This document shows positions 6,504 to 40,192 of a stretch of DNA of 64,000 nt, piece after piece. Each line of letters starts with the position of its first letter. The stretch's first letter is position 1. The position numbers were made by a program, and so were the translations under genes. Location of the stretch: assembly GCF_042242105.1 (NCBI RefSeq), contig NC_092035.1:14720977-14784976 (forward strand), given 5' to 3'. The DNA is from Pempheris klunzingeri. Lineage: Eukaryota > Chordata > Actinopteri > Acropomatiformes > Pempheridae. Below the pieces are notes generated by a model, which saw only the letters and a program-made list of their open reading frames with translations, was not told where the DNA came from and ran no database searches.

Positions 6504-6506
6504 ATT

Positions 6507-15627: not shown

Positions 15628-15925
15628 TGGTAAATGGTAAATGATCTGTATTTGTACAGCGCCTTTCTAGTTATTTCAACTACTCAAAGCGCTTTACATG
15701 ACATCCTCATTCACCCATTCACACATCATTCATGCAGGAGGGATCTAATTTGGAGGAGACTATTCTTTCGTACTCATTCATATACTGAAGCCATGCTTCA
15801 GGAGCAAGTTGGGGTTCAGTGTCTTGCCCAAGGACACTTCGACATGTTGACCCATAGGGTCGGGGATTGAACCCCCGACCTTCTGATTGAGGGACAACTC
15901 ACTCTACCACTGAGCCAGAGCCACC
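15628..15925 (-). mobile_element. tRNA-derived SINE
   Basis: On the minus strand the head reads GGCTCTGGCTCAGTGGTAG (A-box-like) and continues to GGTCGGGGGTTCAATCC (B-box-like), the internal RNA polymerase III promoter layout. The body contains the common fish words AAGCGCTTTACATGACATCC and CACCCATTCACACATCATTC. The 3' tail is AATGGTAAATGGTAAATG on the plus strand. A second, shorter copy lies at 30613-30871. Confidence 0.8.
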
Positions 15926-15939
15926 CTTGAAGCCATTGA

Positions 15940-18845: not shown

Positions 18846-19739
18846 TCAGATCTTATTGCCTAAATCCTCCCGATTTTTTCTGTTGTGACAGAGGACAATG
18901 ACAATGGCAGTGATGATGAGGGCCATGAGCGGAACGACTATGGCTGCTGCTACTGCTGCTCGAATGTTGACATCAACTGCTGGGTTGAACTGGAGTATTA
19001 ACGGACATGTCTCGAAACCCACAAGGTTTTGAGCTGCACAGACATACGTCCCTGAGACAGATTCTCCAGTGATTGCTAAGTGCAGCTCACCTTGCACAGA
19101 ATCAACAATGGCACCACGGGGGATCCTCTTGTCTCCGCTTTCCTTGGACCATTTGTACCACATGGGGAGGCTGCCTTTTGTGCTCTTACATCTGAGCACC
19201 ACCTTGTGATTCACCTCAAACAAACCTTCCAGGTAACATTCAGGTCTAGTTGGCCTCTCCATCACATCCAGGCGAATGATGATGAAGTTGATTCCGGGAA
19301 CTTTCCGAACCTTGCATTGGTAGGTGTTTGCGTCTGTTGGTTTCAAATCGGTAATGCTTATTGAAGCATTGCCACTTGCAGGATCAGAAGACACAAACTG
19401 TACTCTGCCTCTGAATGGATCATCACCATCATATATGTGACCTCCAGCATACCAGATGACTAGTGTCTCGTTTTCACCAAAATCTGAAGGCTTCATGCTC
19501 CATGCAATATCCAGCACTCCAAGGTCCTCAGGACCAAGGAGAAAGTGACAGTTGAGGGTCACACTCTCTCCCACTGCCACATATGTAGGTGACACTGACT
19601 TTGAGACTATCTTCAATCCATAAGTGACAGGCAAAAATGAGACAAGAAGGAAGAAATACCACAGCTCAAGCCTGGTGATGAGGAGTCTTCGATGACGCCT
19701 TTTCAACGTCCTTTTCAAAAATCTTCTGGAGATGGGCAT
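18846..19739 (-). CDS. CXADR-like immunoglobulin-superfamily membrane protein, intronless
   Basis: A 297-residue open frame. Residues 27-40 are a hydrophobic signal segment after a very basic N-terminus. Residues 44-158 form a V-set domain (Cys64 and Cys142, with the DANTYQC signature) containing LGPEDLGVLDIAW and HIYDGDDP. Residues 163-252 form a C2-set domain (Cys184, Cys234, plus Cys168/Cys245). Residues 261-283 are a membrane helix, followed by a 14-residue tail. This order and wording fit the CTX/CXADR family of junctional adhesion molecules; VSIG8 is the next-best fit. Family genes normally have several introns, whereas both Ig domains, signal and helix are in one exon here. That suggests a retrocopy. 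The tail is much shorter than in CXADR and lacks a PDZ-binding end. The frame is intact. Confidence 0.75.
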   Translation of the reverse strand: MPISRRFLKRTLKRRHRRLLITRLELWYFFLLVSFLPVTYGLKIVSKSVSPTYVAVGESVTLNCHFLLGPEDLGVLDIAWSMKPSDFGENETLVIWYAGGHIYDGDDPFRGRVQFVSSDPASGNASISITDLKPTDANTYQCKVRKVPGINFIIIRLDVMERPTRPECYLEGLFEVNHKVVLRCKSTKGSLPMWYKWSKESGDKRIPRGAIVDSVQGELHLAITGESVSGTYVCAAQNLVGFETCPLILQFNPAVDVNIRAAVAAAIVVPLMALIITAIVIVLCHNRKNREDLGNKI

Positions 19740-20044
19740 CCTTTTTGAAATTTTGACTAATAAATAAAGGAAAAGAAAAACAATGTTAAAATTTAGCTTT
19801 GAATAGCTTTAATTGTGGATTTTTGTAAATATTTTTAGATGAAAATATGGAAGCTGACCTCATTGTGATCCTGTTTCAATCTATTATACTAGCACATTAG
19901 CATGCTAATTAGCGAAATCAAAGGTGCCTATTAAAAAGTTAGATTTAAACAAAATACTTTTTTTTTGTAACACTTTTTATTAGTTTTTCCATTTTTTCCA
20001 CAACAACAGAACTTAAACAGTCTGAGAACCATGAAACAAATATA

Positions 20045-21099: not shown

Positions 21100-21605
21100 A
21101 ATTAGGGGGGCTGGCACTGACCCTGGAGCCTGCTCTGCAGGGGGTGCCTGCACACTTCCTGTGGCCATCGTGGTCAGGGGTTCAGGCTCACGTCCTGGCT
21201 CCTCTTCAACTGTGGGTGCTGGCACTGACCCTGGAGCCTGCTCTGCAGGGGGTGCCTGCACACTTCCTGTGGTCATCGTAGTCAGGGGCTCAGACTCACA
21301 TCTTGGCTCCTCTTCAACTGTGGGTGCTGCCATGCACATGACGCTCTGCTCAGCCTGGGGTGCTGGTTGAGCTGATGGCTCATCAAGGGGTGAATTCTTA
21401 CACTCTTTGCTCTGCTTGTGCAGGGGCTCAGTTGCATTCATTTTGTTCTGAAAATAATCTGCATGAAGCCTGCTCTGCAGGGGGTGCCTGCACACTTCCT
21501 GTGGTCATTGTAGTCAGGGGCTCAGACTCATATCTTGGCTCCTCTTCAACTGTGGGTGCTGGCACAGTTGCATTCATTTTGTACAGAAAATAATGTTCAA
21601 CAGGT
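21100..21605 (-). repeat. Pro/Glu-coding minisatellite, unit ~96-120 bp
   Basis: The unit contains TGGAGCCTGCTCTGCAGGGG, TGCCTGCACACTTCCTGTGG and CTCCTCTTCAACTGTGGGTG and recurs three times (about 21116, 21228 and 21470, the last after an interruption). The minus strand stays open through 21088-21495 and encodes repeats like PAPTVEEEPGREPEPLTTM. It lies just downstream of the last exon of the SET/recombinase gene and could be 3' UTR or an alternative C-terminus. Confidence 0.75.
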
Positions 21606-21609
21606 TGTC

Positions 21610-22127
21610 TCAACCTGTCGTCCACCACAGAGCACTTAGTGTGTAAACAGTTTGTGGCGGCTTACTCTTTCGGACTTCAGACTGCCTTGATTTATGCGAG
21701 AAAGTCAATCTCCTCTTTGCCGTGGAAGTTCCAGCTGATGGGAGCTCGTTCTCTGATGATGAGGAAGCCTCACGCTTGCCAGTCTCTCCACATCCCCGTT
21801 GTAACCTTCCACGTCTCTTGTTCATGATCCTTACCTCCTCCGAAGATGACGATGAGCTTGACTCAGGTCCATCATCATATACAGGTTCCTCACCAGCAGA
21901 GCTTGTGTCCGGTGTCTCTATGGAGGCCGCCTCCTCATCAGAACTGATTTGTTCCTCTTGGGAGGGCTTTGCAGCAGCAATCTTCAGGGCCTTCATTCGC
22001 AGTCTTCTTGTTTTATAGGCTGTCTCTTTATCTGGTAAAGAGACATAAAACTTCTCTGCAGTGCTGGGATCGTGGCACATAGATTTTGCCACCTGCTTTC
22101 TCGCCTTCTCTGAGAGGTGTTGTTGGC
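21610..22127 (-). pseudogene. Exon 10: His/Tyr catalytic end and acidic tail
   Basis: Acceptor GGTTTTCAG. It encodes QQHLSEKARKQVAKSMCH, then DPSTAEKFYVSLPD; the His and Tyr match the last His and nucleophilic Tyr of tyrosine recombinases. The rest is acidic and Ser-rich (SSSSSSSEE) with basic KRRGR and AKRR patches that could be nuclear signals, ending LSALWWTTG. Joining to exon 9 gives a one-base phase mismatch. Confidence 0.75.
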
Positions 22128-22309
22128 CTGAAAACCAAAATAAAGACATTGTAAAAAAAAAAAAGTCATATCAAAGCAGTCCTTTTTGCCACTGTGTCTA
22201 AACAATTTTAGTCAATGCTCTGAAAAAACGTATGACAGTCACTCATCACCCCCTAAATTGTGTGCGCACCAAATTTTACCGAGCTGCAAACATTCATGTT
22301 CATTCAAGA

Positions 22310-22800
22310 ACCCAAATGGCCTGAACCCCCAGAGCAAGCCCTAAGGTGACAGTGGCAAGAAAAAAACTCCCTTTTGACAGGAATAAACCTTTTTTCAATA
22401 TTTCCATATTGCTAATGCTAATTTATTAGTCACACTCCTATTGTAAGTGCTATAGTCACTGTTAGCATGTTGGTTGCTGATTGTGTTGTCTCTGTCTCTC
22501 TGTTTGTCTCTCTCTGTCTCCCTCTCTCTCTCACTCTGTCCAATCCGGACATGGACCCTGACAGAAGCCGCCCACATTGAGCCTGGGTCTGTTCGAGGTT
22601 TCTTTCCTTGCCACTGTTGCTCAATATAATATCTGATGCTGCTCATGTGGGAATCCTTGAATCCTTCATTTTGAATTCCTGAATTGTTGGGTTTCTCTCT
22701 AATTAAAGAGTTTGGTCTAGGCCTGCTCTTTATGTAAAGCGTCTTGAGATAACGCTGTTATGAATTGGCGCTCTATAAATAAAGACTGATTGATTGATTG
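22310..22800 (+). mobile_element. 3' end of an L2/CR1-type LINE
   Basis: It contains CAAGCCCTAAGGTGACAGTG, a (CTCT)n/(GTCTCT)n stretch, and ends CTTGAGATAACGCTGTTATG...ATAAATAAAGACTGATTGATTGATTG. The GATT tandem tail is typical of fish LINE 3' ends. It lies in the intron between exons 10 and 9. Confidence 0.65.
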
Positions 22801-22906
22801 AACTCCAGTACCCAACTATTCCAACTTTGAAATTCTAATCAATGACCACGTTACAACTTACAAATTCTATTCTACAGCCAGATTCCAACCTAAATCTAGT
22901 TCTTAC

Positions 22907-23152
22907 CTGAGCAGAGACACTACTCCGGATCTTGTTAAACGTTATGGTACTAGGCATCCCAGAGTCCCCCCAAGCCAGATTCAGGAAGTTAGAGGGCTTC
23001 ACAATCTGCTTGCCAAGTACTGTGTGGAACACATAATTGCTCCCTTGACGACAGCACTTGCCATCACTCAGGTGTTGAAGCCACCCAAACTCCTTCTTAT
23101 TAAGGCTGAGTGCAGCATGACCAAATGACCGCACAGTTTTGTGTTCATCCAC
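22907..23152 (-). pseudogene. Exon 9: catalytic core (Lys and second Arg)
   Basis: An 82-codon exon between TTTCCCAAG and CAG|GTAAGA. It encodes VDEHKTVRSFGHAALSLNKK, then FNKIRSSVSAQ. Lys of EHKT fits the beta-hairpin Lys. Arg of NKIR fits the second catalytic Arg (H-x-x-R box with Asn for His). Open, phase 0 to 0. Confidence 0.8.
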
Positions 23153-23517
23153 CTTGGGAAATAAAATGCAGAAAATTAGCACATAACAGTGGATAGGTGG
23201 ACTTCTATTGAGAATTCTGTAAATTCTGGACTGTAAAACCAGGGACAACAAAACAATAGACCTTCTGTATGCTAATGTTAAGGACGCATACAGCGCCACA
23301 GCTCTACCTCCACTTGGCAGAGCTGACCATAACATACTGCATTTAAAGCCACGCTACATTCCTGCAGTCCAGCGGCAACCTGTGACCACCAGAACTGTTT
23401 GGCGGTGGTCACAGGAAGCAGAAGAGACTCTCCAGGGATGTTTTGAGGTGACCAACTGGGATGTTCTCTGTGACGCGCAGGGGGAGGACATTGAAGGACT
23501 CACAGACTGCATCACAG

Positions 23518-23895
23518 AGTAGACTTAGACTTAGACTTCTTTATTTTATCCCCCATAGGGGGAAATTTTCTTGTTACAGCAGCAACAATATAAACAGGGA
23601 GAGTGAAAGAAACAAAGCAATAGAAAAGACAAAAAATAGCAAATATAAATATAAATATAAATATATGGATTGTGATGAAATGAAATAAATATTTACACCA
23701 TAGGATATTTACACTTTAGACAGGAATGGAATGACATGGATGGTAGGCAGTATATTAACATCAGCCAGTGATGCTAGTGTTATAGAGTCTGATGGCTGAT
23801 GGGAGAAATGACCTGCGGTAGCGTTCCTTCTTGCAGGGTGGGTGCCTCAGCCTGCTGCTGAAAGAGCTGCTGAGGGCCCCCACAGTCTCATGCAG
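23518..23895 (-). mobile_element. Nested LINE 3'-end copy
   Basis: It interrupts the ITEYINFC reading of the host LINE; GAGT occurs at both junctions (23516 and 23900 region). The plus strand begins with the TAGACT tail and TTATCCCCCATAGGGGGAAA and ends in RT C-terminal words (TGCTGCTGAAAGAGCTGCTG). The inverted relative at 28140-28330 shares the CCCCCTATGGGGGATCAAAT motif. Confidence 0.65.
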
Positions 23896-24043
23896 GGGGT
23901 GAGTACATCAACTTCTGCACAAATAACATCATCCCCACTAAGACTGTGCGCTGTTACCCGAACAACAAAGCAAGGACATCAAGGCAACACTGAACAGGAA
24001 GAAGGCTGCATTCAGGAGTGGAGACAAAGAGGAGCTGAAGAGG

Positions 24044-25652
24044 GTGCAGAGTGAACTGAAGGTGAAGATCTCAGAGGGGAAGGACTGTTACAGGAAGAAG
24101 CTGGAGAACAAGCTCCAGCAAAACAACATGAGGGAGGTGTGGAGTGGGTTGAGAACCATCACTGGTCATGGTAAGAAGGATGACCAGAGGATGGAAGGAG
24201 ACCTACAGGAGGCCAATCAGCTAAACCTGTTTTTCAACAGGTTTGACAATGCAGCCTCTGCCCACCCTCCCCCCAGCTCCTCTCATGACGCTTCCCCCAC
24301 TGCTCACTCAATTCACACCTCCTCGACCATCCTCCTCCCCCCGATTTTCCAGCACATCTTCACCTTGAGCCTGAGCCAGATGGTTGTCCCCGACCGTTGG
24401 AAAACTTCATGCCTGGTTCCTGTGCCCAAGAAGAAGCATCCCAACATGCACAGTGACTACAGACCAGTGGCCCTGACGTCACATGTCATGAAGTCACTGG
24501 AGAGGCTCGTCCTGAAGCACCTCCGCACAGTCGTCAGACCATCGCTGGACCCCCTGCAGTTTGCGTACCAGCCCCATATTGGAGTGGAGGATGCCATCAT
24601 CTACCCGCTGCACAGAGTTTATTCTCACCTGGAGGAGCAGCACTGTGAGAGTCATGTTCTTTGACTTCTCCAGTGCGTTCAAAACCATCCGACCTACTCT
24701 CCTTGGCAACAAACTTTTGGACATGCAGGTGGATGCTCCACTGGTGGCCTGGATTACCAACTACCTCATAGGCCGCCCACAGTATGTGAGGCTGCGGGAC
24801 ATCACGTCGGACACCATTGTGAGCAGCACGGGGGCGCCTCAGGGGACGGTCCTGTCTCCCTTCCTGTTCACACTCTACACCTCAGACTTCAGGTTCCGCT
24901 CACAGTCCTGCCACCTGCAGAAGTTCTCAGACGACTCTGCCATCGTGGGCTGTATCAGCAGGGACCAGGAGGCTGAGTACAGGAGTGTGGTGGACAGGTT
25001 CGTGGAGTCGTGTGGACTGAACCATCTACAGCTCAACGTCACCAAGACAAAGGAGCTGGTGGTGGACTTCAGGAAGCAGAGGACCTGTCCAAACCCCATC
25101 ACCATCAACGGATTAGAGGTGGACATCGTGGAGGACTACAAGTACCTCGGTGTCCACATAGACAATAAACTGGACTGGTCTAGAAACACCCACGCCGTCT
25201 ACAAGAATGGTCAGAGCCGACTGTACTTCCTCAGGAGGCTCAGATCTTTCAATGTCTGCAGAACCATGATGCAGATGTTCTATCATTCTGTGGTAGCCAG
25301 CGTCACCTTCTACGCTGTAGTGTGCTGGGGCAGCAGACTGAAGACAGCTGACGCCAACAGACTCAACAAGCTCATCAGGAGAGCTGGTTCTGTCCTGGGA
25401 GTCGAGTTGGAGTCTGTGGTGGAGGTGTCTGAGAGGAGGATGCTGAAGAAGCTGCTCAGCATCATGGACAACACCTCCCACCCCCTGCACGCCACACTGA
25501 GAGCACCTTCAGTCGTTGACTCAGACCACCAAGGTGCACCACAGAACGCCACAGGAGGTCTTTCCTACCTGTGGCTATTAGACTGTATAACGCCTCCTCC
25601 ACCAGCAGGAGGGACACGTAACGGACTCATTCAGCAGAATCATGTGCAATAA
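24044..25652 (+). pseudogene. LINE ORF2 reverse transcriptase, frameshifted
   Basis: 24044-24664 covers the pre-RT linker and the first RT blocks (LVPVPKKKH, PLQFAYQPHIGVEDAI). 24640-25652 covers the palm and thumb (FFDFSSAF, GAPQGTVLSPFLFTLYT, the catalytic FSDDSAIVG, NHLQLNVTKTKELVVDF). A one-base shift near 24640 separates them. The usual segment with SGKAAGPDG is missing between TSSTILLPP and FQHIFTLSL, so an internal deletion is also present. The C-terminus keeps LYFLRRLRSFNVC and VVCWGSRL. Confidence 0.85.
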
Positions 25653-26130
25653 CCGTGAAGGTCATTCCCTTTCACTTTGTCTCCCGTTTTGCAGTTTGCA
25701 CTTTGCACATATCTTATTTAATTGTTAAAGTCTATTCTGTATAGTTTCACTTACTTTGCACACTTCACCTCACACACTGTGACACTTCTCACAAATTTGT
25801 ACTTTTCAATCTGTACTTTTTGTTTTAAAAAGGGACAGACTATTTAATTTAATTGTATTTTATTGTGTCTAAGTTTCTGTTCAATTTTTGTATTTTAATA
25901 TTTTGTATTGTTGTGACGACCTCTGTACCGCACTCTGGCACAACAATTTCCTCCGGGATAAATAAAGTCGGTCTTATTCTTATTCTTATTCTTAATTCAG
26001 CTGATTTAAGACACGGGTCAAAGCTGACCCGTTAACATAAGAGATGGTAACAGAAAGCTAGCACAAGAGGAAGGTTAATTCAACAAATTAACTGTTTATC
26101 ACATGGTCCCTCCCCCTTAAAAAGACTAAC

Positions 26131-26303
26131 CAGAACTTGGAATTTGTTTCCATGATCCCATCTCTCACAGTTGACCACACTTTCCTTCATCATGTTTGTG
26201 AGTACCACGGATCTGTGTCCAGTAATGATGCACAGATAGCACATGATGTACCCCGTGATCAAGGCATGATTGTTGTCAGGAGCTCCATTGCGGCCAAAAC
26301 ATT
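26131..26303 (-). pseudogene. Exon 8: catalytic-domain start with first Arg
   Basis: Acceptor TTTTGTAG and donor CTG|GTTAGT. It encodes CFGRNGAPDNNHALITGYIM, then LCIITGHRSVVLTNMMKES. The Arg of TGHR is at the position of the first catalytic Arg of tyrosine recombinases. It is open and in phase with exons 7 and 9. Confidence 0.75.
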
Positions 26304-26385
26304 CTACAAAACATAGTAAGATATGCATAAAAAAAATACAGCTTGTTAAGAATGAAAGCTTGCAAAGAAGGAATACAATGTGAAG

Positions 26386-26745
26386 TCTAGGGCTGCACAG
26401 TGGCTTGGTGGTTGGCACTTTCACCTTGCAGCTAGAAGATCCCTGGTTCGCGTCCCGGCCTTCCTGGGATCTTTCTGCATGGAGTTTGCATATTCTTCCT
26501 ATGCATGCGTGGGTTTTCTCCGGGTACTCCGGCTTCCTCACACCAAAAACATGCTCAGATTAATTGGTAACTCTAATAGGTGTGAATGCGAGAGTGACTG
26601 TCTGTATATGTAGCCCTGCGATAGACTGGCGACCTGTCCAGGGTGTCCCCTGCCTTCGCTTTAAGTCAGCTGGGATAGGCTCAAGCCCCCCCGCGACCCT
26701 AATGAGGATTACGCGGTGTATAGATGATGGATCGATGAATGATTA
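26386..26745 (+). mobile_element. tRNA-derived fish SINE with GATG-type tail
   Basis: It begins GGGCTGCACAGTGGCTTGGT (A-box region), with GGTTCGCGTCCCGGCC as B-box, then GGAGTTTGCATATTCTTCC and GGGTTTTCTCCGGGTACTCC. It ends GCGACCCTAATGAGGATTAC followed by GATGGATCGATGAATGA. The tail resembles RTE/Rex3-mobilised SINEs. It lies between exons 8 and 7. Confidence 0.85.
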
Positions 26746-26756
26746 AGTCTACTTAC

Positions 26757-26828
26757 CAAACAGTTCAGGAATTTTTTTCCTGGCAATCACCAAGAATTGG
26801 CTTTCCTGGTCTGCATCAAGCTGATTTT
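26757..26828 (-). pseudogene. Exon 7
   Basis: A 72-nt exon between TTTTTACAG and G|GTAAGT. It encodes NQLDADQESQFLVIARKK followed by IPELF. Phases are 1 to 1, consistent with both neighbours, and no lesion is seen. Confidence 0.7.
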
Positions 26829-26973
26829 CTGTAAAAACAGTGTGATGGGCACCACGCATTTATGAGGTTCCAAGTTGCAGTTTATTAAGATGACAACATA
26901 TATACAGCACACAAAATAATAATTTTTTTGAAAGAACGCAATATCAAGGATAACAGATGGTGACAACATCTAC

Positions 26974-27174
26974 CTGTCTTTTTCCGCAACACTTTCTGCT
27001 GGTGGACGACAACTCTTCTTTGGACCTCAGCCTGAATCCTCTTCATTTCATATTGAATGTTCTTCAAGTTCTTTGGGTTTCAGCTTACTCGCACTCAGAA
27101 ATGAGTTTTCAATGTCTGCAGAACATGACGACGTCGGTCAACACGTTTTTCACTGACGTGGGTGCATATCCCTT
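26974..27174 (-). pseudogene. Exon 6: core-binding-like region with two frame changes
   Basis: Acceptor CCTTTTTCAG and donor ACAG|GTAGAT. The reading is GYAPTSVKNVLTDVVMF, then (next frame) IENSFLSASKLKPKEL, then (third frame) KNIQYEMKRIQAEVQRRVVV and HQQKVLRKKT. Each part fits the family in order, and the last frame joins exon 7 in phase. Two small indels therefore appear inside the exon. Confidence 0.7.
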
Positions 27175-27915
27175 CTGAAAAAGGTATTTATTTATTTATT
27201 TATTTAACAGGGACGGTACACATTAGTGAACATTTCTGTAAATGTGCCAGTATTAGCGTAAGGAAGCTATTTTTCAACTGTTGTCCCTGGGCAAGGTGTA
27301 AAATGCCAGCAGTCCATTTTTACAGTGGGGGGAAAGTGGGGAGGAAAACAGGAGGAGAGAGAGAGGGGAGGAGAAAAAACATGCGACACCAGACTGTACT
27401 CGTGGAGTGCAGTGTGGGACCGGTAAAAAAAACCCTCAGCACAAATTTTTAGCACATCACATGACAATAACAACATTGCAACAGGGGAGGGGAAAAGGGG
27501 AGTGGAGATATTCCAGCACCGCAGGAGGCAGGCTGCTGGCTACAGCCCCGATAGGCGAACCCTTGGACCACGCCCCTCGTACTGGAGGGGTGGAAGCTGG
27601 CGAAGGCGTTGGATGTAGGGCAGGAGTAAGTCCTGATGTGTTGCTCATCAGTTCCCAAAACCCGCCTCAGTTCATTCGCGGTTGTCGGCGATAACATGGT
27701 GGTTGCCATGGAGATGTCCCTGGTCTGGTTCCAGACAAGTCAACAAGCATCAGGTGGATGGGGGTGGCATGGGGAAGAGCGTCCCAGCTGCAGTGAACTC
27801 AGAGGGGAGATTATTCCAGTAGTGACCTTGGCCAAGGCCACTGCTTAGGGGAGGCCAATTCAGATTAGATTATTTGGGTTAGAGCGAGACAGCCATATTC
27901 AATAGACTTGGCTTA
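27175..27915. other. Intronic stretch with (TTTA)n and G-rich sequence
   Basis: 27184-27208 is (TTTA)n. The rest is G-rich to mixed and contains no motif I recognise, though it looks like part of a mobile element. Confidence 0.35.
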
Positions 27916-27917
27916 CT

Positions 27918-28517
27918 CTATTGTCCATTCTGGTCACTCAATCGATCCAATCCTTTTTGCAGAGCCGAAAGCTTCTCCAAGATGTTATCCGTGTGGTTGA
28001 GGACCGCGGCCTGAGCCCTGCCTAAATCCTCAATCATGGCCGGCAGCGGAGTAGGGCCCTTGACTGCTGCCACCGTCTTCCAGTTTTGACGATACATCAG
28101 TGCAATGCATAATCCAATCAGCAGAACACCTATTATCATGGTTCCAAGTGTAAATATCCCATAGTGTAAATATTTATTTCATCACAGCCATATATTTATA
28201 TTTATATTTATTTGCTATTGCTATTTTTTCTTCTACTATTGCTTCTTTTCACTCTCCCTGTTCAATTGTTGCTGCTGTAACATGAAAATTTCCCCCTATG
28301 GGGGATCAAATAAAGAAAAGTCAAAGTCAAACAGATAAACATCTTCCACGACCTCAATGGATAGTTCCGCCAGGCACATGGTCCTCCACTTATCCCACGA
28401 GTCGACCATGTAGCCAGCTGGAAATGTTCCTTGAGGGCATGCCGGTTCCCCAGGCACCACTCTTCTGGTGCTGAAAATTTTATTAACTGCATGGAGAGAC
28501 CAGTTCACTAATTCCAT
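27918..28517 (-). pseudogene. Unrecognised small membrane-protein ORF, broken by a LINE end
   Basis: 28331-28517 encodes MELVNWSLHAVNKIF and WDKWRTMCLAELSIEVVEDV. After a 190-bp insertion, 27918-28139 encodes a hydrophobic segment (MIIGVLLIGLCIALMY), a Pro-rich link and a heptad-like tail (ILEKLSALQKGLDRLSDQ) to a stop. Together they would be a ~135-residue single-pass protein with a coiled-coil tail. I do not recognise the family. A retroelement accessory or envelope-like piece is possible. Confidence 0.4.
28140..28330 (+). mobile_element. LINE 3' end inserted in the membrane-protein ORF
   Basis: Contains TAAATATTTATTTCATCACA and TTCCCCCTATGGGGGATCAA, ending in AAAGAAAAGTCAAAGTCAAA. It is the inverted relative of 23520-23720. 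Confidence 0.7.
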
Positions 28518-28519
28518 GG

Positions 28520-28864
28520 TTAAGGTTTAGAGTTTTAGAGAACAGTGCAGAGAGAGGCTCCTAGTCAAGACAAGACTGAGAGCAGAGCAGGAAAAGATAA
28601 GGGAAGGAGAGAGAGGGGAGAGTGCGACCGCCTTCGTCAAGAGCCAAGGAAGAAGAGGTAGGTTGGCCAGCTATGGAAAAAGGTACACAGTTACAAGTTA
28701 CTTGATCTTCCACCACAAAATATCTCAATCCATACTGCAACATCCAAATTTTCACCTACTTTGAAACATAATAGATTACAAAGTGAAAGCTATAGATAAG
28801 AATATGTCATTTGTGCCAAGATATCTATGATAATTAGCATATTTTAGGTCAAGAAAAATATTAC
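28520..28864. other. Unassigned intronic stretch
   Basis: No recognised gene or repeat end. Confidence 0.3.
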
Positions 28865-29050
28865 TCATGCACGCAACTTGTCCATTTGGTTGAGGAACCT
28901 TAGGTCATGTGAGATGGAACTGGATGGGAGGCCAGCAGCCATGTAAAGGCAAAAGCGACGAGCATGGCATGAGGACTGCCTTGCATTTTCCATGTCCTTC
29001 CTTCCAGTCCGTGGGCCCAAGTGAAACTTTTCAGTCTGGAACAATCTTTT
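28865..29050 (-). pseudogene. Exon 5: recombinase N-terminal (core-binding-like) region
   Basis: Acceptor TTTTTATTGCAG. It encodes FHLGPRTGRKDMENARQS, HARRFCLYMAAGLPSSS and LRFLNQMDKLRA, matching the helical N-terminal part of Crypton-like fish proteins. The last codon before a GTAATA donor is TGA. Relatives have Trp there, so a TGG to TGA nonsense change is likely. Confidence 0.65.
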
Positions 29051-29175
29051 CTGCAATAAAAAGCTTTAAACATTAGTTGTACAATCCAAATACAAAAACA
29101 AAGGTGAAACAAATTTACTGTAACTGTCAAAATTCTCTCAGAAACTTCTAGTTGAAAGGAAAGGAAACCTTACCT

Positions 29176-29833
29176 CACATATGTCAAACTCAAGGCCTGC
29201 AATACAATTATATACGGCCCGCGAGATAATTTCATGTGACTATTAAGAATGACCTGTGCAGCAGCCCCTCCTCCCGATCAATGCCTCGCTCAGCACTGTT
29301 ATAGCGACACTTATGGCGCGTTTCCACTAGTACCTACTCAGCTCTACTAGGCGTAGGTATGGAGTAGGTACTAGTGGAAACGCACCATTAAGCTAGCCCC
29401 CCCAAAATAAATGGCTAAACGAAAAGTGGACTTTGAAAACAGAGACTTTGAAAACAGAGACTTTCAAAGCAGGTGGGGGGCAGAATTTTACCTGTTTGTC
29501 GATATCGGAGGAAAACCTGTGTGTCTTGTTTGTGGAGCTGATGTGGCTATAATTAAAGAATATAAATATAAGACGACACTACAGCAGGAGAAGTACAAAA
29601 AAAGAAAACAGTTATTTAAAATTCTATTTATTTTATTGAGGAAAAGTTGTTGAAGTTTGGCTGTTTAAATTCATATTTCTGGATAAAATATATATATATA
29701 TATTATATTATATTATATACTATAATAAAAGAGTCACTATTAGAGTCTTCACTAAATGTTGAGCCTGTTTGGCCCGCGACTTAGACCGTGTTTTAAATTT
29801 TGGCCCTTTCTTTGATTGAGTTTGACACCCCTG
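29176..29833 (+). mobile_element. hAT-like element at the exon 4 splice donor
   Basis: A perfect 8-bp duplication CCTTACCT flanks it (29168-29175, 29834-29841). The right end in reverse complement is CAGGGGTGTCAAACTCAA and the left end CACATATGTCAAACTCAA. 29411-29653 (+) encodes a BED-type finger start (MAKRKVDFENRDF, PVCLVCGADVA) like hAT-derived fish proteins, truncated at 80 residues. A 15-bp direct duplication (GACTTTGAAAACAGA) lies in it. At 658 bp it is non-autonomous. Confidence 0.85.
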
Positions 29834-29839
29834 CCTTAC

Positions 29840-30171
29840 CTAATAAAGGACCGCACTTCTTTTCTTTCCCTAAATGTTCCCCTTTTTGAACCGATAGAGG
29901 TGGTTTACGTGGTGTGCTGTTTGGTGTCTGTGGCTGCATTGTCATCATTCGGTCCACCTTTTGCTCCAGCAGCTGTAACCTGGTTTCAACCTGCTCCCAG
30001 CGGGAGTTGCATGAGCACACCTTTGACATCGAGCCAATCACATTTTCACTCTGGCCACTCAAGTGTCCCGGAAGGTTGGATGAAGGTAGGTCACTCTCAC
30101 AGGATGCAGGATTCATGGATGAAGGAAGTTGATACGAAGAAAGGGAAGAGGGGGTTTGGGTCCCAGAAACA
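29840..30171 (-). pseudogene. Exon 4: Ser/Pro-rich linker with short coiled coil
   Basis: The acceptor CCTTCAACCAG abuts a SINE fragment. The donor TTAG|GTAAGG lies exactly at a hAT insertion. It encodes a Ser/Thr/Pro-rich stretch (GTQTPSSLSSYQLPSS) and a heptad-like WEQVETRLQLLEQKVDRM. It starts in phase 2 as exon 3 requires and ends in phase 1. The next recognised block starts in phase 0, so a small exon is unseen or an indel exists. Confidence 0.65.
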
Positions 30172-30255
30172 CTGGTTGAAGGAAGTGGCTGGATAGGCTC
30201 CAGCTCCCCCGCAACCCTTACGGATAAGCGTATAGAAAATGAGATGAGATGAGAC
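30172..30255 (+). mobile_element. 3' fragment of a tRNA-type SINE
   Basis: GGCTGGATAGGCTCCAGCTC...GCAACCCTTACGGATAAGCG, ending in a GAGAT repeat tail, matches the 3' part of the fish SINE at 26386-26745. It sits against the polypyrimidine tract of exon 4. Confidence 0.65.
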
Positions 30256-30304
30256 AATGTTAGGTTTGGGTTAGTGTATAAATATACACATTTCCTAATC
30301 TCAC

Positions 30305-30426
30305 CGTGCATTCCCATATTTCATTAGAAGTTGAAACTCCTGTTTGTTTGGAATTGTGTGACACGCTATTAGGTGTTGCTTCAAGTTGGCGAAGTTTCCG
30401 AAACACAATCCACACAGTTTCTTCCT
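30305..30426 (-). pseudogene. Exon 3: C2H2-type zinc finger
   Basis: The acceptor is TTATTTGTCCACAG and the donor CG|GTGAGA. It encodes KKLCGLCFGNFANLKQHLIA followed by CH: a Cys-X2-Cys and His-X3/4-His pattern. The phase is 0 to 2, matching exon 4. The finger probably binds nucleic acid or stabilises the linker. Confidence 0.75.
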
Positions 30427-30515
30427 CTGTGGACAAATAAAAGTGACGCACCAAATTGAGGCTCTGTGTCTTCAGCATACTAATGTAAAGTAACACCATG
30501 TTTTTATCTACTTAC

Positions 30516-30562
30516 CATCTTTTCAACAACTCTTCCAGATGAATGCTGAAACAACTTACAAG
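30516..30562 (-). pseudogene. Exon 2: start of zinc-finger linker
   Basis: A 47-nt exon with acceptor CTTCATAG and donor ATG|GTAAGT. It reads CKLFQHSSGRVVEKM after the split codon. The phase (1 to 0) matches both neighbours. Confidence 0.7.
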
Positions 30563-30612
30563 CTATGAAGAAAAGCAAGCACAATGAATGTTTTTCACGT
30601 TTTGATCAGAAC

Positions 30613-30871
30613 AAGCACTAAATGGTTTGCATTTGTATAGCACCTTTCTAGTTATTTGAACTACTTAAAGCGCTTTACATGACATCCTCATTCACCCATT
30701 CACACATCATTCATACAGGAGGAATGTAATTTGGAGGAGACTTTTCTTTCATGCTTCAGGAGTGTCTTGCCCAAGGACACTTCGACATGTTGACCCATAG
30801 GAGCTGGGGATCGAACCCCCGCCCTTCTGATTGAGGGACGACCCAGTCTACCACTGAGCCACAGCCGCCCC
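30613..30871 (-). mobile_element. tRNA-derived SINE, second copy
   Basis: Same family as 15628-15925 (CAAGGACACTTCGACATGTTGA; minus-strand head GGCTGTGGCTCAGTGGTAG), with a short internal deletion. It lies in the intron between exons 1 and 2. Confidence 0.8.
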
Positions 30872-31677
30872 AGTACAGTCAAGCAACGCTTTGCCTCTTT
30901 AATGACAATATCTTCCACATGCTAACCTGCTGATTGTTTATTAACATGATTTGGCATCGTCTCTGATCATTTAACAGCAATCTTGTCCTAACATACTTCT
31001 TTAACTTTTTTTTCACAGCACATGTCCAACAGATTGATTCTTTCACTTCCTCACTTTTAATTTATCATTAGTTTTGAAAATCTTTCCCTCGTGCTTCTGT
31101 TACCTTCACACTTAAGGCTCTCCTGTCGTCCTCCCGGACTCTTCTGGGCTGTGAACACTCTTCTTTTTGACTCTGCTGTCAGAGCCGGTCCAGAAGTTGG
31201 CTTTACCACCTCATTTCTTTCCCTGTCTTCAGAGGTCTTTTCTGCTCCTACACCTTGCGGCACTGATGACCTATTTTGGTTAACTGTGAGGTATTGTTCT
31301 CTCTCAGCTCTCATGGACCTTTCCTCTCCTGCCTCAGCAGTTGCATTTTGAGGTGTGTCAGTGATGCAAGGTTCAGTGCTGCTGTACTTGTTGCTTTGAC
31401 TTTCTGAGATTGCATCCTCAGACTTCTCATTTGCTATTGTGTTGCAGGTTAGGCCTGCACCACTCTTCTCTCTGTGATGACAAATATATCTCTTTTTCAG
31501 GTGATAGTTTTGGCTCACAGTGTCCTTTGTTGTTTCCGAGTCATGCTGCTTCCCCTGGTGTTTGAAGTGACCCTTTCCATTACTCTCACAGGTGCAACAT
31601 TCACACATTTCATTTCCATCCCCAAAAAAGCTATCACCATAGTAATATGTCAACTCCTCCCCAGGTGAGATTGGTCG

Positions 31678-33127
31678 TGTGGCGAGCGGAGGGTCAGGAA
31701 AATAAAGAAATAGTCGTTCTTACTCTATTTAACAAATCAAGTTGCCAGACAACGCCACTTTGGGATCTCAGCCCAAAGAACTGAATGATGCACCTTTAAA
31801 GGCGCACAGGTCCGTTCACTCAAATAGCAAGTGTTCCAATCTCAAACAAAATAAGTTTTATGAACAGAATTTGATTAAAATGATATAAAAACACACCATT
31901 CACACGGGGATTAAACTAAGGGACTAAATTAAAGCTGAGGATACCGGTGCACGAGTTGATGGAGCGGTGAATCCCAACAAAAACAAAAAAAAGAGAAGAC
32001 ACCCAGCTGTGACAGTCACACACACACACGTGAAGGATACCCGAATCCCAGGGAGCACAGCACACAAAAGGGGATCCCACCACCAGACCACCGGACCTCA
32101 GCAACTAAAACAAAAGGAACACACACACACACACACACACACACAGGTTAGTGGGGTTACAATAATCCAACAGAACAAACAATATACAAAAACTTGGAAA
32201 CAAATAAATGGCAGCAGAAATCAATTAAACTAAACAAAACTACCAGTTGCCAAATATAAATTACTCAAAATACAAAGAAAAATAAACAAGGTAAGAAACA
32301 AGAAAAACTCTGCCCAAATGAAATATCTAAACAAATAAATCTAAATACAAAAATAATCAATACAACAAATCAAGACAACGGAGCAGGGCAATGAAAACAA
32401 AAATGCAACCCACACTCCCAACAAACAGACTTTAAAAAGGGCTCCAATCAAGCCAGTCAATTAATAACAGTCAGCACACCAGAGTACCACGCAATACTTG
32501 CGAGTGATGTAAGCCAGGGGAAAAGCAATTGTCTTAAGAAGGCAGGTCCACAGCTGGTGAAGTAGAACCTCTCCACCAGACGGATGATGGAAATCGACGC
32601 GTTATAGCGGACACGCCGAGGAAACTCACTGACGCCGATCTCCACAAAGCAGCAGCGATCCACACAACGCAGCAACGATCCACACAACGCAGCAGCAATC
32701 CACACAACGCAGCAGCGATCCACACAAAGCAGGTCCCCACAAAGCAGGTCCCAACAAAGCAGGTCCCAATAAAGCAGCAGCAATCCCCAGCTACGAGCAG
32801 CGCCAACTGTGTAGTCAGCTGCTGACGCCACACACCTGACCGCAAAAATCACCGTGCCGACAGTGAGCAGGGTACACGATCCATAAAAACTCCGGGGCAC
32901 TCGAACCAAGGGCCCTGCAGTACAACACAGCAATTAATAATAACCCACAGGCCTACACAGAAGGTGAGCAGACTAGCCGCCTTACCTGCCCGATATGAGC
33001 GTGGTCGAGCCGGCAGTGACGTAATCCACCCCTTAAATAGCCATGGCGCCATCAGTGGTTGGCTATGGTGCTGCCAATTGGCACCGTCAGAGTAGAATAA
33101 TGGCAGCACAATTTCTATGCTGCTACA
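31678..33127 (-). mobile_element. LTR-type insertion (solo LTR or TRIM-like) inside the SET exon
   Basis: On the minus strand it starts TGTAGCAGCATAG and ends CGCTCGCCACA (TG...CA). It is flanked by GTCG at 31674-31677 and 33128-33131. No coding domain is visible. The interior has a TATA-like CTATTTAAGG on the minus strand near 33040, a (CA)n run at 32120-32145 and a minisatellite at 32640-32775. A 1450-bp solo LTR fits best. An alternative is a short 5' LTR ending near 32808, followed by TTGGCGCTGC as primer site. Confidence 0.7.
32636..32775. repeat. ~19-21 bp minisatellite
   Basis: Units such as GCAGCAGCGATCCACACAAC and CAAAGCAGGTCCC repeat about seven times within the LTR-type insertion. 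Confidence 0.8.
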
Positions 33128-33739
33128 GTCGAATCACTTCAATATAAGCAATATTCTTCTCACCAGGATGGAGCTTGCAGTTTGGGTTGCAGTCATGGTT
33201 AATAAAAACTGCAGGCCCAAGGAACAGCTGACTGCAGCGTTGGCGTTTGGAATACATCACACTGAAGTCATTGACACCTGCCCTCAGCATCTGGCTGTCA
33301 GCGGGACTCAAGTTTGCTGTGCAGGCCAGCAAGAACTCCAGATGCTGTCCTGCAAACCAGTGCTTTGTTGAAGTTACCTTTGCTCCATTGATCTTTAAAG
33401 AGTACCTGTCACAGGACTCTATCTTGACACCGTCCAACGCGAAGGCACTGAGATAGCAATACACATGTTGCCGTAGTAGCTCCTGACGATGGCCAGAGAT
33501 TGAAAGTAGTTACCAGCCAGTTCGCCCACTGTCAGGGCCTCAAATGTTGCATTGAAATCACAAATAAGCTGAAATTGCATCAGGGTATTTTTGAGATGAT
33601 CCCAACATGGTAACACTGGTGGAGGACTAATGTTCATTTTATGGGTGCTGAAGCCCAGCAGTGGGTCCAGCACCAAACCGGTGGCAAGGTCATCAGTCTC
33701 ACATAGTTCCTTAACAATCAATCTGTTCCATCTGTCCAT

Positions 33740-34373: not shown

Positions 34374-36514
34374 CACTGTCAGCCCGGATAAGTAGAGTTT
34401 ACTTAAAAAATTTGAGGCAAGTGATTGCACTTAAATTATTTGATTATAGGTTTAACTTTAATGCTAAAAGTATTGGACTTAAATTATTAAGTAGAAAGGA
34501 CTAAAAGACAAGTTATTTGTACTTGAAATGCTGAGTTGAATGGTTGGATAGTGGGGTTGATTTTACAACAGATTTAAAGGTAAACTGACTAATTTTCTTA
34601 ATTGCAATCAGATTAATTCATCATTGATTAAACAACTTTTTTTAAGTTAATCAAACTCAAAATCCTATCTCTAACCAAAATAGTTATTTGTGTTAATAAA
34701 AAACATTTAATAAACACAAAATGCAGGGATTTAAATGAACAATTTTGTTTAACATTGCCAAATAAAAAGTAGCTATGTAGCAATAGGCCAAAAAAACATT
34801 ACATGAAAAAGTTTTGTGGTGCTTGCTCTTGCACAGAGTAGAACAAAGCTTTTACAACCTCTGTAGATGTAAGATATCTCAATTTAAAACATTTTTGTAT
34901 TTTGAACATCAGTTGCAACTCCTAATATTCTTAAGGAGAACAAGAAAGGAAGAACAGAGTTTAACCTCTGACAAGACAATGAACAATTATCTAAACAAAT
35001 GCTTATAGTGCAAGATGTGGTAATGCTAGTGTTGTCCATCACATGAAAAGGACCCTCTGTCAACAGCATTAAAGGACGTACATTCTTTGTGCACCTTTTA
35101 AGGTCTTATGCTTGCTGCTCACCAGTCAGCATGAACTCTTTTATGAAAATAAAACATGTTTCTATTATATTGTTGAACTACAACATAGACATATAAATCT
35201 AGCTTGAACTAAAACTTGCACTTTACGTACACAATGAACACTCTGGTGCTATGATCAATCTTACAGGGCAAGTGCATTCTTTAGAGTCTGAAGTTTGTGT
35301 GGTAGCACACTTGACCCAGGTTTAGCATCACTTGCTGAATGAAGGTGAGTGTATTCTTCATACACTTTGGATACTCCAAATGGAGGGCATATGTTAGGCC
35401 AAACAAAACACACATCGCCTGAGGTAGGTTGATGAGGTCATCGATCACAAGGCTGCCCTCTATGATGACCCCTGCTCTGCTTGGGTTCAGCAGCGATGGG
35501 TTTTGGGCACCACTTTCTTCAGAGCAGAGGATACCCACCGGAACATTCAACACGTCTCTGTCATGAAGGTCTTACAAAATTTGAGTAACAAGAGAAACAA
35601 AGATATTCATGCCAGTTATAATTTTTTTGAAAATAGTTATACAGTTAGTTGACCTTAAAGCACTGCAGAAAAATCAAATCTTCAATAAACTTTTAGTTGT
35701 GGGGACACAATAGCAAAGGAAACAACAGTTTTCATACTCTATACTTTTCATACTTTTTCATACTCCATACTCCATTCATACTAACCCTATTTCCAAAGCA
35801 TTTAGGACTGATGTTCAAAATATCTACCTTTTGAATAAAATTAGAAACTTTGCTTGTTGGGAAGTGTGTAACCTCTAGGGCCCAAAAAAGGAAAATGATT
35901 TGTTTTTACTGTCAACTACCTTGACCAAATAACGTGACAATATTTTGAGGTTACACGACAGGATGTGTATGTACCACAATTAACAGAAATTAAATTAAAT
36001 TTTAGGCTTCAGTGACAACATTTAAATATACAAGAGAAAACAACTCACCAAATTCCAGAATGTGAAGAAAAGAGAATCGTCTTAAACACTGTCAACCGTA
36101 AGATTTTCCAGCCCTCTGTGCACAGCAAATAAATTGCTTAATCCAGAGAATTTTCAAATTACTTAATTTCTATTAAGTAAGGGAAAGCTGTGTAAAAACA
36201 AGAAAATGGCAGATTCTCCCTCAAACAAGTCCAGACTAATTTAGAGGTAACCAGCCAATCAGATTCACACCTCACTTCAGTTGTTTCTAAACTTCAGTTT
36301 CAAGTTGATTAAACTAAACATTTTTAGTGAACCCTGTATTTGGGTTAAAAATTGATATTATAAATTTTCATAACTCAGAACTTTGAGTGCACTCTGCCAT
36401 CACATTCTAATAGTAAACTTCACTAAAATAGTTTGAGTAATCCAACAAAACTTGTTTTTTAAATTAAACCTTACTTAGAAAATTTGCTTATAAACAATTT
36501 CTGGGTTAACAGTG
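34374..36514 (-). mobile_element. CACTG-ended EnSpm-like transposon
   Basis: The left end is CACTGTCAGCCCGGAT. The right end in reverse complement is CACTGTTAACCCAGAA. The outer flanks (AAGTGAGCTA and TAATAGTGATAAGAC) are adjacent in the paralogous repeat at 17028-17060, so 34374-36514 is an insertion. CACTG termini are usual for animal EnSpm/CACTA. It contains a terminal exon at 35281-35567 and no transposase, so it is internally deleted. Confidence 0.7.
35281..35567 (-). CDS. Terminal exon of a multicopy fish transposon-associated protein
   Basis: An acceptor TTTTGTAAG precedes a frame ending with a stop at 35281-35283. The reading includes DVLNVPVGILCSEES, VIIEGSLVIDDLINLPQ and LFGLTYALHLEYPKCM, then TFIQQVMLNLGQ. 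I recognise this C-terminal region from many unnamed fish predicted proteins. A related ending is at 57302-57520. Its location inside a CACTG-ended element suggests it is a transposon gene rather than a host gene. No function is assigned. Confidence 0.55.
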
Positions 36515-37418: not shown

Positions 37419-40051
37419 CAGAATCAAAATCAGAATTACTTTAATAATCCCCACGGGGGAAATTGCTTTTTGTTACACACAGCTCCAAAAGAATAAGAAT
37501 AAGAATACACTTCAAACACAAGTAAAATACAAATATATAAACGTATGAATAAAAAAAAAAAAAATGTATTAAAAATTATTACAAATTATTACACAGAGGT
37601 AAATTACTGCACCAGGTGAGTCCAGAGTCTTATAATAATAATAATAATAATAACAATAATACCACTACTAATAAAAATATATAACATGCACAATCATAGT
37701 AAGGCGCTGTACTATATAATACCAATAATACTACTACCACTACTACTACTACCAACAATAATATATAACAACATGTACACTCAGAATGAGGAGCTGAATC
37801 ATATAATAATAATAATAGTAATAACATACAACAACATGTACACTCAGAGTGAGGAGTTGTGTAGATTAATGGCCACAGGCAGGAATGATTTCCTGTGGTG
37901 CTCTGTAGTGCATCGTGGTACAATTAGTCTGGCACTGAAAGAACTCCTATATCTAACCAGCACTTCATGGAGTGGGTTGGACACATTGTCCAAAATAGCT
38001 CCCACTTTGTGAAGCATTCTCCTCTCTGACACCACCGTCAGAGAGTCGAGCTTCACTCCTACAACGTCACTGGCCCTGCTTATCAGTCTGTTCAGTCTAT
38101 TGACATCCTCTACCCTCAGCCTGCTGCCCCAGCATACCACAGCATAGAAGATAACACTGGCTACCACAGACTCATAGAACATAGTCCTGCAGATGTTGAA
38201 GGACCTCAACCGCCTCAGAAAATAGAGGCGGCTCTGGCCCTTCCTATAAAGGGCATCAGTGTTCATCCCCCAGTCCAGTTTGTTATCAATGTGTACCTCC
38301 AAGTACTTATAATACTCAACAATGTCCACACTGACCCCCTGAATGAAAACAGGGGACACCGGCACCTTGGTCCTCCTCAGATCCACCACCAGTTCCTTTG
38401 TCTTTGTCACATTGAGCTGTAGATGGTTCTGCTCACACCATGTGACAAAGTTGTCCACAACAGCCCTGTACTCAACCTCATCACCCTTACTGATACATCC
38501 AACTACTGCTGAGTCATCAGAAAACTTCTGGAGATGACAGGTCTCTGTGCAGTAGTTGAAGTCTGTGGTGTAGAGGGTGAAGAGGAAAGGAGAGAGGACA
38601 GTCCCCTGTGGGGCCCCGGTGTTGCTGACCACTCTGTCTGACACACAGCGTTTCAGGCGCACATACTGTAGTCTGCCAGTCAGATAGTCCACAACCCAGG
38701 ACACGATGGCGGGGTCCACCTGCATCGCTGACATCTTCTCACCCAGTAGACCTGGGCTGATGGTGTTGAAAGCACTGGAGAAGTAAAAAAACATGACTCT
38801 CACAGTGCTCGCCGTCTTGTCCAGATGAGTGTAGACGCGGTCAAGCGGGTAGATGATGGCATCCTCCACTCCAAGTTGGGGCTGGTAGGCGAACTGTAGG
38901 GGGTCCAAAAATGATTTGACCACGGGCCGGAGCTGCTCCAAGATGAGTCTCTCCAGGGTCTTCATGATGTGGGAGTTCAGCGCCACAGGTCTGTAGTCCT
39001 TAGAGTCACCGGGGCGCAGCTTCTTCGGCACAGGAACTAGGCGGGATGTCTTCCACATCACTGGGACCCTCCGCAGACTCAAACTCATGTTGAAGACATG
39101 CTGAAGAACTCCACAGAGCTGGATGGCACAGGTTTTGAGCACCCTGGGGCTGACACCATCAGGGCCTGCAGCCTTGCCAGAGTGAAGTTTTGACAGCTGT
39201 CTTCTAACATCTTCAGCTGTGATAGTCACTGAAGATGGGGGTGAGGGGGTGGGGATAGAGGTGAGAGAGTGGCCTTCCCTTGAAGATGAGAGGCTGAAAG
39301 GAGGGTGAGGGGGAGAGCGTGGAGTAGGTGTTGTTGGGGGCAGAACAATCAAGGTATTGATGTTAGTGTCTATAGGGAGTGCAGGGGACTGGGCATCAAA
39401 TCTGTTGAAGAACAGATTAAGCTCATTGGCCCATTCCACACTGCCTTCAACTCCACTGTTGCCAGCTGACTTAAAACCAGTGATTGTTCTCATCCCTCTC
39501 CAGACCTCTCTGTTGTTATTATGCTGGACTTTCTGCTCCAACTTCTTCCTGTATTCCTCCTTAGCCTCTCTGATCTTGTACTTCAGGTGTCTCTGTGTGA
39601 TTCTCATTTCCTCCTTGTTGCCAGCCCTGAAATCCCTCTTCTTATCATTCAGGAGGGCCTTAATGTCCTTTGTTACCCACGGCTTGTTGTTTGGGTAACA
39701 GTGAACAGTCTCTACAGGAACAATGGAGTCTACACAGAAGTTGATATAGTCCGTGATGCACTCTGTGAGCCCGTCGATGTCTTCTCCATTTGGCTCACAG
39801 AGTGCCTGCCAGTCTGTGACCTCAAAACATCCCTGCAGTTCCACATACACTTCTTCCGACCATCTCCTCATTGTCTTTACGGTCACAGGCTGTCTTTTTA
39901 CCAGAGGCAAATAAGTGGGACTGAGGTGTATGAGATTGTGGTTAGACCTGCCCAGAGGGGGGAGGGGAGAGGAGCTGTATGCAAAGAAAACTAGCAGGAG
40001 CAATCGTAACAGGCAGCATATACTCAGCACATGCGCACAGGAACACAATAT
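37419..40051 (-). mobile_element. Rex1/L2-like LINE, 5'-truncated, nearly intact RT
   Basis: On the minus strand it starts in the endonuclease and ends in a tail of GATTCTG/GATTTTG-type repeats (plus strand CAGAATCAAAATCAGAATTA at 37419). The flanks GACATT and CTTGCTGATATAAGCCC are joined directly at 16011-16040 in the paralogous satellite, defining the borders. 37500-37860 is 3' UTR rich in (TAA)n. Confidence 0.85.
37844..40048 (-). CDS. LINE ORF2: endonuclease C-terminus plus complete reverse transcriptase
   Basis: An open frame of 734 codons. Residues ~30-55 are the last endonuclease block (LPPLGRSNHNLIHLSP), so most of the endonuclease is missing. A linker of ~230 residues follows (YPNNKPWVTKDIKALL), then RT blocks: SGKAAGPDGVSPRVLKTC, LVPVPKKLRPGDSKDYRPVA, MFFYFSSAFNTI (first Asp replaced by Tyr), GAPQGTVLSPFLFTLYTTDF, the catalytic FSDDSAVVG and NHLQLNVTKTKELVVDL. 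The C-terminal domain has LYFLRRLRSFNIC and VVCWGSRL. The D-to-Y change in the first catalytic block probably abolishes activity even though no stop is present. Confidence 0.88.
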   Translation of the reverse strand: MCSCAHVLSICCLLRLLLLVFFAYSSSPLPPLGRSNHNLIHLSPTYLPLVKRQPVTVKTMRRWSEEVYVELQGCFEVTDWQALCEPNGEDIDGLTECITDYINFCVDSIVPVETVHCYPNNKPWVTKDIKALLNDKKRDFRAGNKEEMRITQRHLKYKIREAKEEYRKKLEQKVQHNNNREVWRGMRTITGFKSAGNSGVEGSVEWANELNLFFNRFDAQSPALPIDTNINTLIVLPPTTPTPRSPPHPPFSLSSSREGHSLTSIPTPSPPSSVTITAEDVRRQLSKLHSGKAAGPDGVSPRVLKTCAIQLCGVLQHVFNMSLSLRRVPVMWKTSRLVPVPKKLRPGDSKDYRPVALNSHIMKTLERLILEQLRPVVKSFLDPLQFAYQPQLGVEDAIIYPLDRVYTHLDKTASTVRVMFFYFSSAFNTISPGLLGEKMSAMQVDPAIVSWVVDYLTGRLQYVRLKRCVSDRVVSNTGAPQGTVLSPFLFTLYTTDFNYCTETCHLQKFSDDSAVVGCISKGDEVEYRAVVDNFVTWCEQNHLQLNVTKTKELVVDLRRTKVPVSPVFIQGVSVDIVEYYKYLEVHIDNKLDWGMNTDALYRKGQSRLYFLRRLRSFNICRTMFYESVVASVIFYAVVCWGSRLRVEDVNRLNRLISRASDVVGVKLDSLTVVSERRMLHKVGAILDNVSNPLHEVLVRYRSSFSARLIVPRCTTEHHRKSFLPVAINLHNSSL

Positions 40052-40192
40052 CTTGCTGATATAAGCCCTTGAAATACTTAATCAGCCTCCTACATCTCAC
40101 TTTCATTGAGATATAAGCCCTTGAAATAATTCCAAATTTTCTTCTGACACATAACAATGGATGTAGATTTGGAACGTTTTTGATACGTTATA

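What the first reader, a model, noticed from the sequence alone, without database searches (positions are those of the whole stretch)
21610..33739. Candidate SET + zinc-finger + tyrosine-recombinase fusion gene
Seen: minus-strand exon blocks run from a KMT5B/C-type SET domain ([18 protein letters not shown], post-SET CECCTCE) to a domain with Crypton-like recombinase wording. The SET exon donor (phase 1) and next acceptor join to give KCEAC, completing a Cys pair. Exons 2-4 and 6-9 keep phase. Known: SET enzymes of this class modify H4K20; Crypton-type recombinases have been domesticated in vertebrates. Inference: one gene couples a chromatin methyltransferase to a transposon-derived DNA-binding fold. 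I know no described gene with a Suv4-20-type SET domain in this arrangement.
Basis: partly seen in the sequence, partly recalled or inferred. Interest (0 to 1): 0.85.

Follow-up and report, generated by a model that had tools for sequence, protein, structure and literature searches.

The report
Decayed fish methyltransferase–recombinase fusion gene
In a fish genome lies the broken remnant of a gene that seems to have joined a copied histone-modifying enzyme to a jumping-gene recombinase; a wrasse has an annotated relative without visible breaks that keeps the enzyme and zinc fingers but not the recombinase core.

Summary
The SET and recombinase parts are real, on one strand and in the order described, but the window copy is a dead gene and several "exon" readings are wrong. 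The SET part is KMT5C/SUV420H2-like. Its "intron" 33127–31678 is a 1,450-bp TG…CA insertion flanked by CGAC, like a solo LTR, inside one uninterrupted coding block. That block also has a frame change, and the recombinase exons carry several more. The second half belongs to a fish tyrosine-recombinase family with zinc fingers. "KCEAC" is KMT5C tail plus recombinase leader, a coincidence. The join is not a one-off: of 73 proteins fetched, one, Notolabrus celidotus LOC117825569, has both parts, its KMT5C tail ending at the same donor point before the zinc finger. Its SET shares a large deletion and 10 derived residues with the window and groups with it, 98/93. Best reading: fossil of a chimeric gene born in percomorphs by retroposition of KMT5C beside a recombinase element, SETMAR-like in plan. 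No transcript was seen; the recombinase parts of the two fusions do not group. Crypton membership is not shown.

The parts
33497..33739 (-). KMT5C-derived coding block, codons 1-81 (N-domain), first frame
33482..33503 (-). frame change inside the SET block, no splice sites
   Evidence: tblastn frames -1 and -3 overlap here
33128..33494 (-). KMT5C-derived SET block to IEVIR, second frame
31678..33127 (-). 1,450-bp insertion with TG...CA ends, solo-LTR-like, inside the SET block
   Evidence: flanking CGAC duplication
33128..33131 (.). target duplication CGAC, left copy
31674..31677 (.). target duplication CGAC, right copy
31104..31677 (-). end of SET, post-SET and KMT5C tail (with a large internal deletion) to the donor
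30865..31103 (-). KMT5C-like sequence running on past the donor; start of the intron of the fusion
   Evidence: tblastn P0012 740-791 at 31020-30865, E 8.4e-4 against the window; against 30600-31110 alone P0012 E 7.6e-6, P0007 7.6e-4
30619..30870 (-). repeat (SINE-like by look) inserted in the intron; second copy at 15638-15926, 80%
30516..30562 (-). exon 2: leader exon of the recombinase gene, ends in its ATG
   Evidence: relatives P0004, P0062 start M-x-x-K-L-C-G here
30305..30426 (-). exon 3: first zinc finger
   Evidence: 72-82% to P0001, P0002, P0004, P0062
29840..30171 (-). exon 4: linker; the second zinc finger that should precede it is missing
28868..29050 (-). exon 5: core-binding domain, frame change near its start
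26974..27174 (-). exon 6: core-binding domain, two frame changes
26757..26828 (-). exon 7
26131..26303 (-). exon 8: catalytic domain with Arg I (TGHR)
23942..25652 (+). LINE reverse-transcriptase-like fragment inside the intron between exons 8 and 9
   Evidence: 70% to 37851-39103, part of an RVT_1 ORF
22907..23152 (-). exon 9: catalytic Lys (EHKT) and Arg II (IRSS)
21610..22127 (-). exon 10: catalytic His and Tyr (MCHD...FY), homology out of frame with exon 9
21208..21640 (-). C-terminal tail, further frame changes
   Evidence: tblastn P0001 787-875 in two other frames

Best explanation
The locus is a dead copy of a chimeric gene that arose once in percomorph fishes. Shown: a KMT5C-derived block without introns lies upstream, on the same strand, of a spliced tyrosine-recombinase gene; the block holds a splice donor at the point where KMT5C short isoforms diverge; the recombinase's own leader exon is the next acceptor; a Notolabrus protein carries both parts with a SET of common origin; the window copy is broken. 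Inferred: KMT5C messenger was copied back into DNA beside a recombinase element; its internal donor then spliced to the element's leader exon and gave a protein with methyltransferase, zinc fingers and (at first) recombinase fold. The likely action was to bring H4K20 methylation to sites bound by the zinc fingers and recombinase domain, for example copies of the element, silencing them. In the window species the gene later died by frame changes, loss of a zinc finger and an LTR-like insertion.
For: SET identity. Notolabrus LOC117825569 (P0002) aligns over SET, tail, donor point and first zinc finger, and again at the recombinase C-end. Same deletion REKS|(S/G)AGL and 10 derived residues not seen in any of 17 KMT5C; grouping 98/93, inside an 18-row set at 100/97. 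Parent Notolabrus KMT5C (P0021) is listed on a different contig (29.5 Mb) from P0002 (40.8 Mb). Models that skip or insert pieces (P0028, P0047, P0049, P0054, P0055) imply introns within the canonical SET, none in the window. KMT5C short isoforms diverge at the CTAE point (P0005, P0010, P0021). No stop in 273 SET codons of the window despite 54 private changes; neutral runs without a stop 10 of 300.
Against: No RNA evidence. The recombinase parts of window and P0002 do not group: the window pairs with Mastacembelus P0004 (88/88); holding them together is not rejected (p-AU 0.09). The leader stretches of the two fusions are not alike (15 residues before the Met in the window, 11 in P0002). SET changes hit invariant KMT5C sites nearly as often as variable ones (window 49 of 216 vs 15 of 60; P0002 39 of 216 vs 15 of 60), so KMT5C-like function was not closely kept. 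P0002 is a predicted protein whose DNA and exons I did not see; its open frame (13 of 300 neutral runs without a stop) is what any model would show. It is one of 73 proteins, and lacks the recombinase core. Both SETs are long branches. The silencing role is not tested.
Confidence: 0.6

Rival explanations
1. Mere neighbours: a KMT5C retropseudogene landed upstream of a recombinase element in an ancestor; they were inherited together but never made one protein, and the Notolabrus model is a gene-prediction chimera.
For: Other recombinase-family models carry unrelated upstream parts (P0058 with Pfam PF21787/PF21788, a transposase-type domain by recall; P0072 with an immunoglobulin-like stretch by eye). 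No transcript seen. The leader stretches of the two fusions differ. SET changes are not concentrated at variable sites.
Against: In both species the KMT5C tail stops at the same point and runs in frame into the zinc finger, and the window SET stayed free of stops longer than neutral simulation suggests (10 of 300).
Confidence: 0.3
2. One reading: an intact working SET-zinc-finger-recombinase gene in this species.
For: Most splice sites and all five recombinase residues survive in the letters.
Against: Frame changes in the SET block and in exons 5, 6, 10 and the tail, a missing zinc finger and a 1,450-bp insertion in SET.
Confidence: 0.02
3. A mobile recombinase element that carries a captured KMT5C as cargo, so that the unit moves as a whole.
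For: Several models of the recombinase family per species (4 in Knipowitschia, 3 in Siganus); recombinase parts of the two fusions do not group while SETs do.
Against: Only two fusions known (and the window); element ends not found; copy number in the window's genome could not be searched.
Confidence: 0.06

Closest known systems
SETMAR/Metnase (primates)
   Same: SET methyltransferase gene joined to a downstream transposon enzyme; passages of PMC8994322 seen give two SET exons plus one Hsmar1 exon
   Different: There a mariner transposase and another SET gene; here a KMT5C retrocopy and a spliced tyrosine-recombinase gene, dead in this species
KMT5C/SUV420H2
   Same: N-domain, SET, post-SET motif, tail up to an alternative donor point
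   Different: No introns in the window block, large tail deletion, frame change and insertion; best block identity 75% (P0012)
Crypton elements and Crypton-derived DUF3504 genes (ZMYM2/3/4, QRICH1, KCTD1, KIAA1958, WOC)
   Same: Eukaryotic tyrosine recombinase; precedent for vertebrate capture (PMC3212892, passages, section 8)
   Different: Many introns, zinc fingers at the front, no DUF3504 match, His of HxxR replaced
Host-transposase fusion genes such as KRABINER and CSB-PGBD3
   Same: Host domain gains a transposon part (named in PMC12062965 passages)
   Different: Different host and transposon domains

Membership tests
KMT5C/Suv4-20 methyltransferase | Sequence relation over N-domain and SET | tested here: met
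   E 6.6e-81 to 4au7 over residues 6-242
KMT5C/Suv4-20 methyltransferase | Intact reading frame in the window | tested here: not met
   frame change and insertion
Tyrosine recombinase | Catalytic R-K-R-H-Y, His to Tyr 9 residues | tested here: met
   All five in the window letters and in 18 of 25 relatives aligned (19 by the printed table, but the Arg I of P0053 lies in an unrelated stretch); rest truncated, exon-skipped or diverged; P0058 was left out
Tyrosine recombinase | Fold | tested here: met
Crypton | His of box II (HxxR) | tested here: inconclusive
   N, T or G at that place in the rows that cover it; whether Cryptons allow this was not tested
Crypton | Similarity to DUF3504/Crypton recombinase | tested here: inconclusive
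   No DUF3504 in the tables (one search shows 25 of 27 families); no Crypton sequences at hand
Crypton | Element ends and target | not tested
   No second copy of the recombinase exons was found in the window; ends unknown
Host-transposase fusion gene | Same join in more than one species | tested here: met
   window and P0002, by protein alignment
Host-transposase fusion gene | Spliced transcript | not testable with these tools
   no RNA data
Host-transposase fusion gene | Selective constraint | tested here: inconclusive
   window SET free of stops longer than neutral, but invariant sites not spared

The most novel reading that the evidence does not exclude
A chimeric gene joining an H4K20 methyltransferase to a tyrosine-recombinase element was born once in percomorph fishes, worked for a long time as a sequence-targeted chromatin silencer, survives in a wrasse as a SET-zinc-finger protein, and is caught as a fossil in the window species.
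Probability: 0.3. Interest if true: 0.75.

Novelty: new variant of a known kind. Interest (0 to 1): 0.5.

Why it matters
It would be an independent SETMAR-like birth of a chromatin enzyme aimed by a transposon protein, with a different SET enzyme and a different class of recombinase. It also suggests a route: a retrocopy of a long isoform carries an unused splice donor that can capture a neighbouring element's leader exon.

Tried and rejected
Intact gene in the window: rejected. KCEAC as a zinc ligand pair: rejected, not in P0002 and upstream of the recombinase's own start. Exon skipping as the cause of the shared deletion: less likely, both ends seem to fall inside stretches continuous in KMT5C isoforms. 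Sequence search of the recombinase part against solved structures gave one weak match, E 0.75. Pfam on ten window pieces found no recombinase family. tRNA and Rfam scans of the window were empty. Ten paper searches (two found no paper): no title or abstract start listed, and no passage opened, describes this fusion. Opened: PMC3212892 (passages and section 8), PMC8994322 (passages), PMC12062965 (passages), PMC10027918 (passages); the rest seen as listings only. That canonical KMT5C has introns in SET rests on predicted protein models, not genomic DNA. Protein searches were capped to the candidates sharing most words (7,986, 7,985 and 7,991 scored).

Full report
What is there. On the minus strand, 33739 to 31465 encodes a KMT5C/SUV420H2-type N-domain, SET and post-SET (E 6.6e-81 to 4au7), followed by a KMT5C tail to a GT donor after 31104. 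Exons follow that begin at 30562, 30426, 30171, 29050, 27174, 26828, 26303, 23152 and 22127 (the end of exon 5, which begins at 29050, is doubtful). They match a fish protein family without a given name.

The SET part. Two things break it. Between 33503 and 33482 the frame changes without splice sites. Between 33127 and 31678 lies a 1,450-bp stretch beginning TG and ending CA, with CGAC on both sides. Codons on either side read IEVIR and PISPGEE, as in KMT5C, so this is an insertion into coding sequence, like a solo LTR, not an intron. Apart from it the block is uninterrupted from codon 1 to the donor. Predicted KMT5C proteins of five fishes (P0028, P0047, P0049, P0054, P0055) lack or insert pieces inside the same region, which implies several introns there. 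So the block looks like a processed copy. KMT5C-like sequence also runs on past the donor to 30865 (P0012 E 8.4e-4; E 7.6e-6 in a search of that stretch alone), up to a repeat at 30870-30619. The donor therefore lies inside KMT5C sequence; short KMT5C isoforms of Lates, Paralichthys and Notolabrus diverge at this point.

Decay. Exon 5 has a frame change, exon 6 two, exon 10 is out of frame with exon 9, the tail changes frame again, and the second zinc finger is missing. The gene is dead.

The fusion in another fish. Of the 73 proteins fetched match SET, 26 match the recombinase or zinc-finger part, and one matches both: Notolabrus celidotus LOC117825569 (P0002, 916 aa). It has SET, tail, CTAE|G junction, two zinc fingers and the recombinase C-end, without the core. 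Its DNA was not seen. Its SET and the window's share a large internal deletion at the same point and 10 residues seen in none of 17 KMT5C (C4W, I124V, R128K, E134Q, I143T, W175F, C201Y, C252S, L270I, R271C). They group at 98/93 in a tree of the window and 26 chosen proteins (bootstrap not fully settled, both long branches). The parent KMT5C of Notolabrus is listed on another contig. Against a simple story, the recombinase parts do not group in a tree of 20 rows (the window and 19 of the 26 family proteins; p-AU 0.09, a third of columns filled for P0002), and the leader stretches differ.

Was it a working gene? In 273 codons with 54 private changes the window SET has no stop; 10 of 300 neutral runs did as well. 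For P0002 the figure is 13 of 300, but a predicted protein has no stops by construction. The frameshift expectation in that script (1 per 12-20 substitutions) is my assumption. On the other side, changes are almost as common at invariant as at variable KMT5C sites. I read this as a protein kept for some time with relaxed or altered SET function.

Known or new. SETMAR is the nearest plan (PMC8994322 passages). Crypton capture in vertebrates is known (PMC3212892, passages and section 8), but this family could not be shown to be Crypton. The paper searches named under Tried and rejected showed no description of this fusion; most subscription papers are not in the library. The host species of the window was not identified.

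Noticed in passing
6166-15055 and 58107-64000: An LTR retroelement-like unit with about 340-bp near-identical ends (97%), and a second copy in inverse orientation, about 95% identical over 5.97 kb, cut by the window end.
   Followed up: partly
18846-19808 (-): Single open frame of 320 aa with V-set and Ig domains (Pfam), looks like a CXADR-type protein without introns; possible retrocopy. The CXADR likeness is recalled, not searched.
   Followed up: partly
37844-40081 (-): LINE reverse-transcriptase ORF (RVT_1 E 2.5e-23), 745 aa stop to stop, related to the fragment in the exon 8/9 intron.
   Followed up: partly
49880-54994 (+): Open frame of 1704 aa with a Pao retrotransposon peptidase match (E 1.4e-44) and a weak integrase match.
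   Followed up: no
40355-41406 (-): Tc1-like transposase, seemingly in two overlapping frames (HTH_Tnp_Tc3_2 E 2.3e-14 for 40768-41406; the other frame was not scanned).
   Followed up: no
35281-35571 (-): 96-aa frame upstream of the SET block with no Pfam match; resembles a widespread fish repeat-gene fragment by recall only.
   Followed up: no
P0058, P0072: Recombinase-family exons annotated in one model with unrelated upstream parts in Siganus and Scortum; prediction chimeras or further captures.
   Followed up: no
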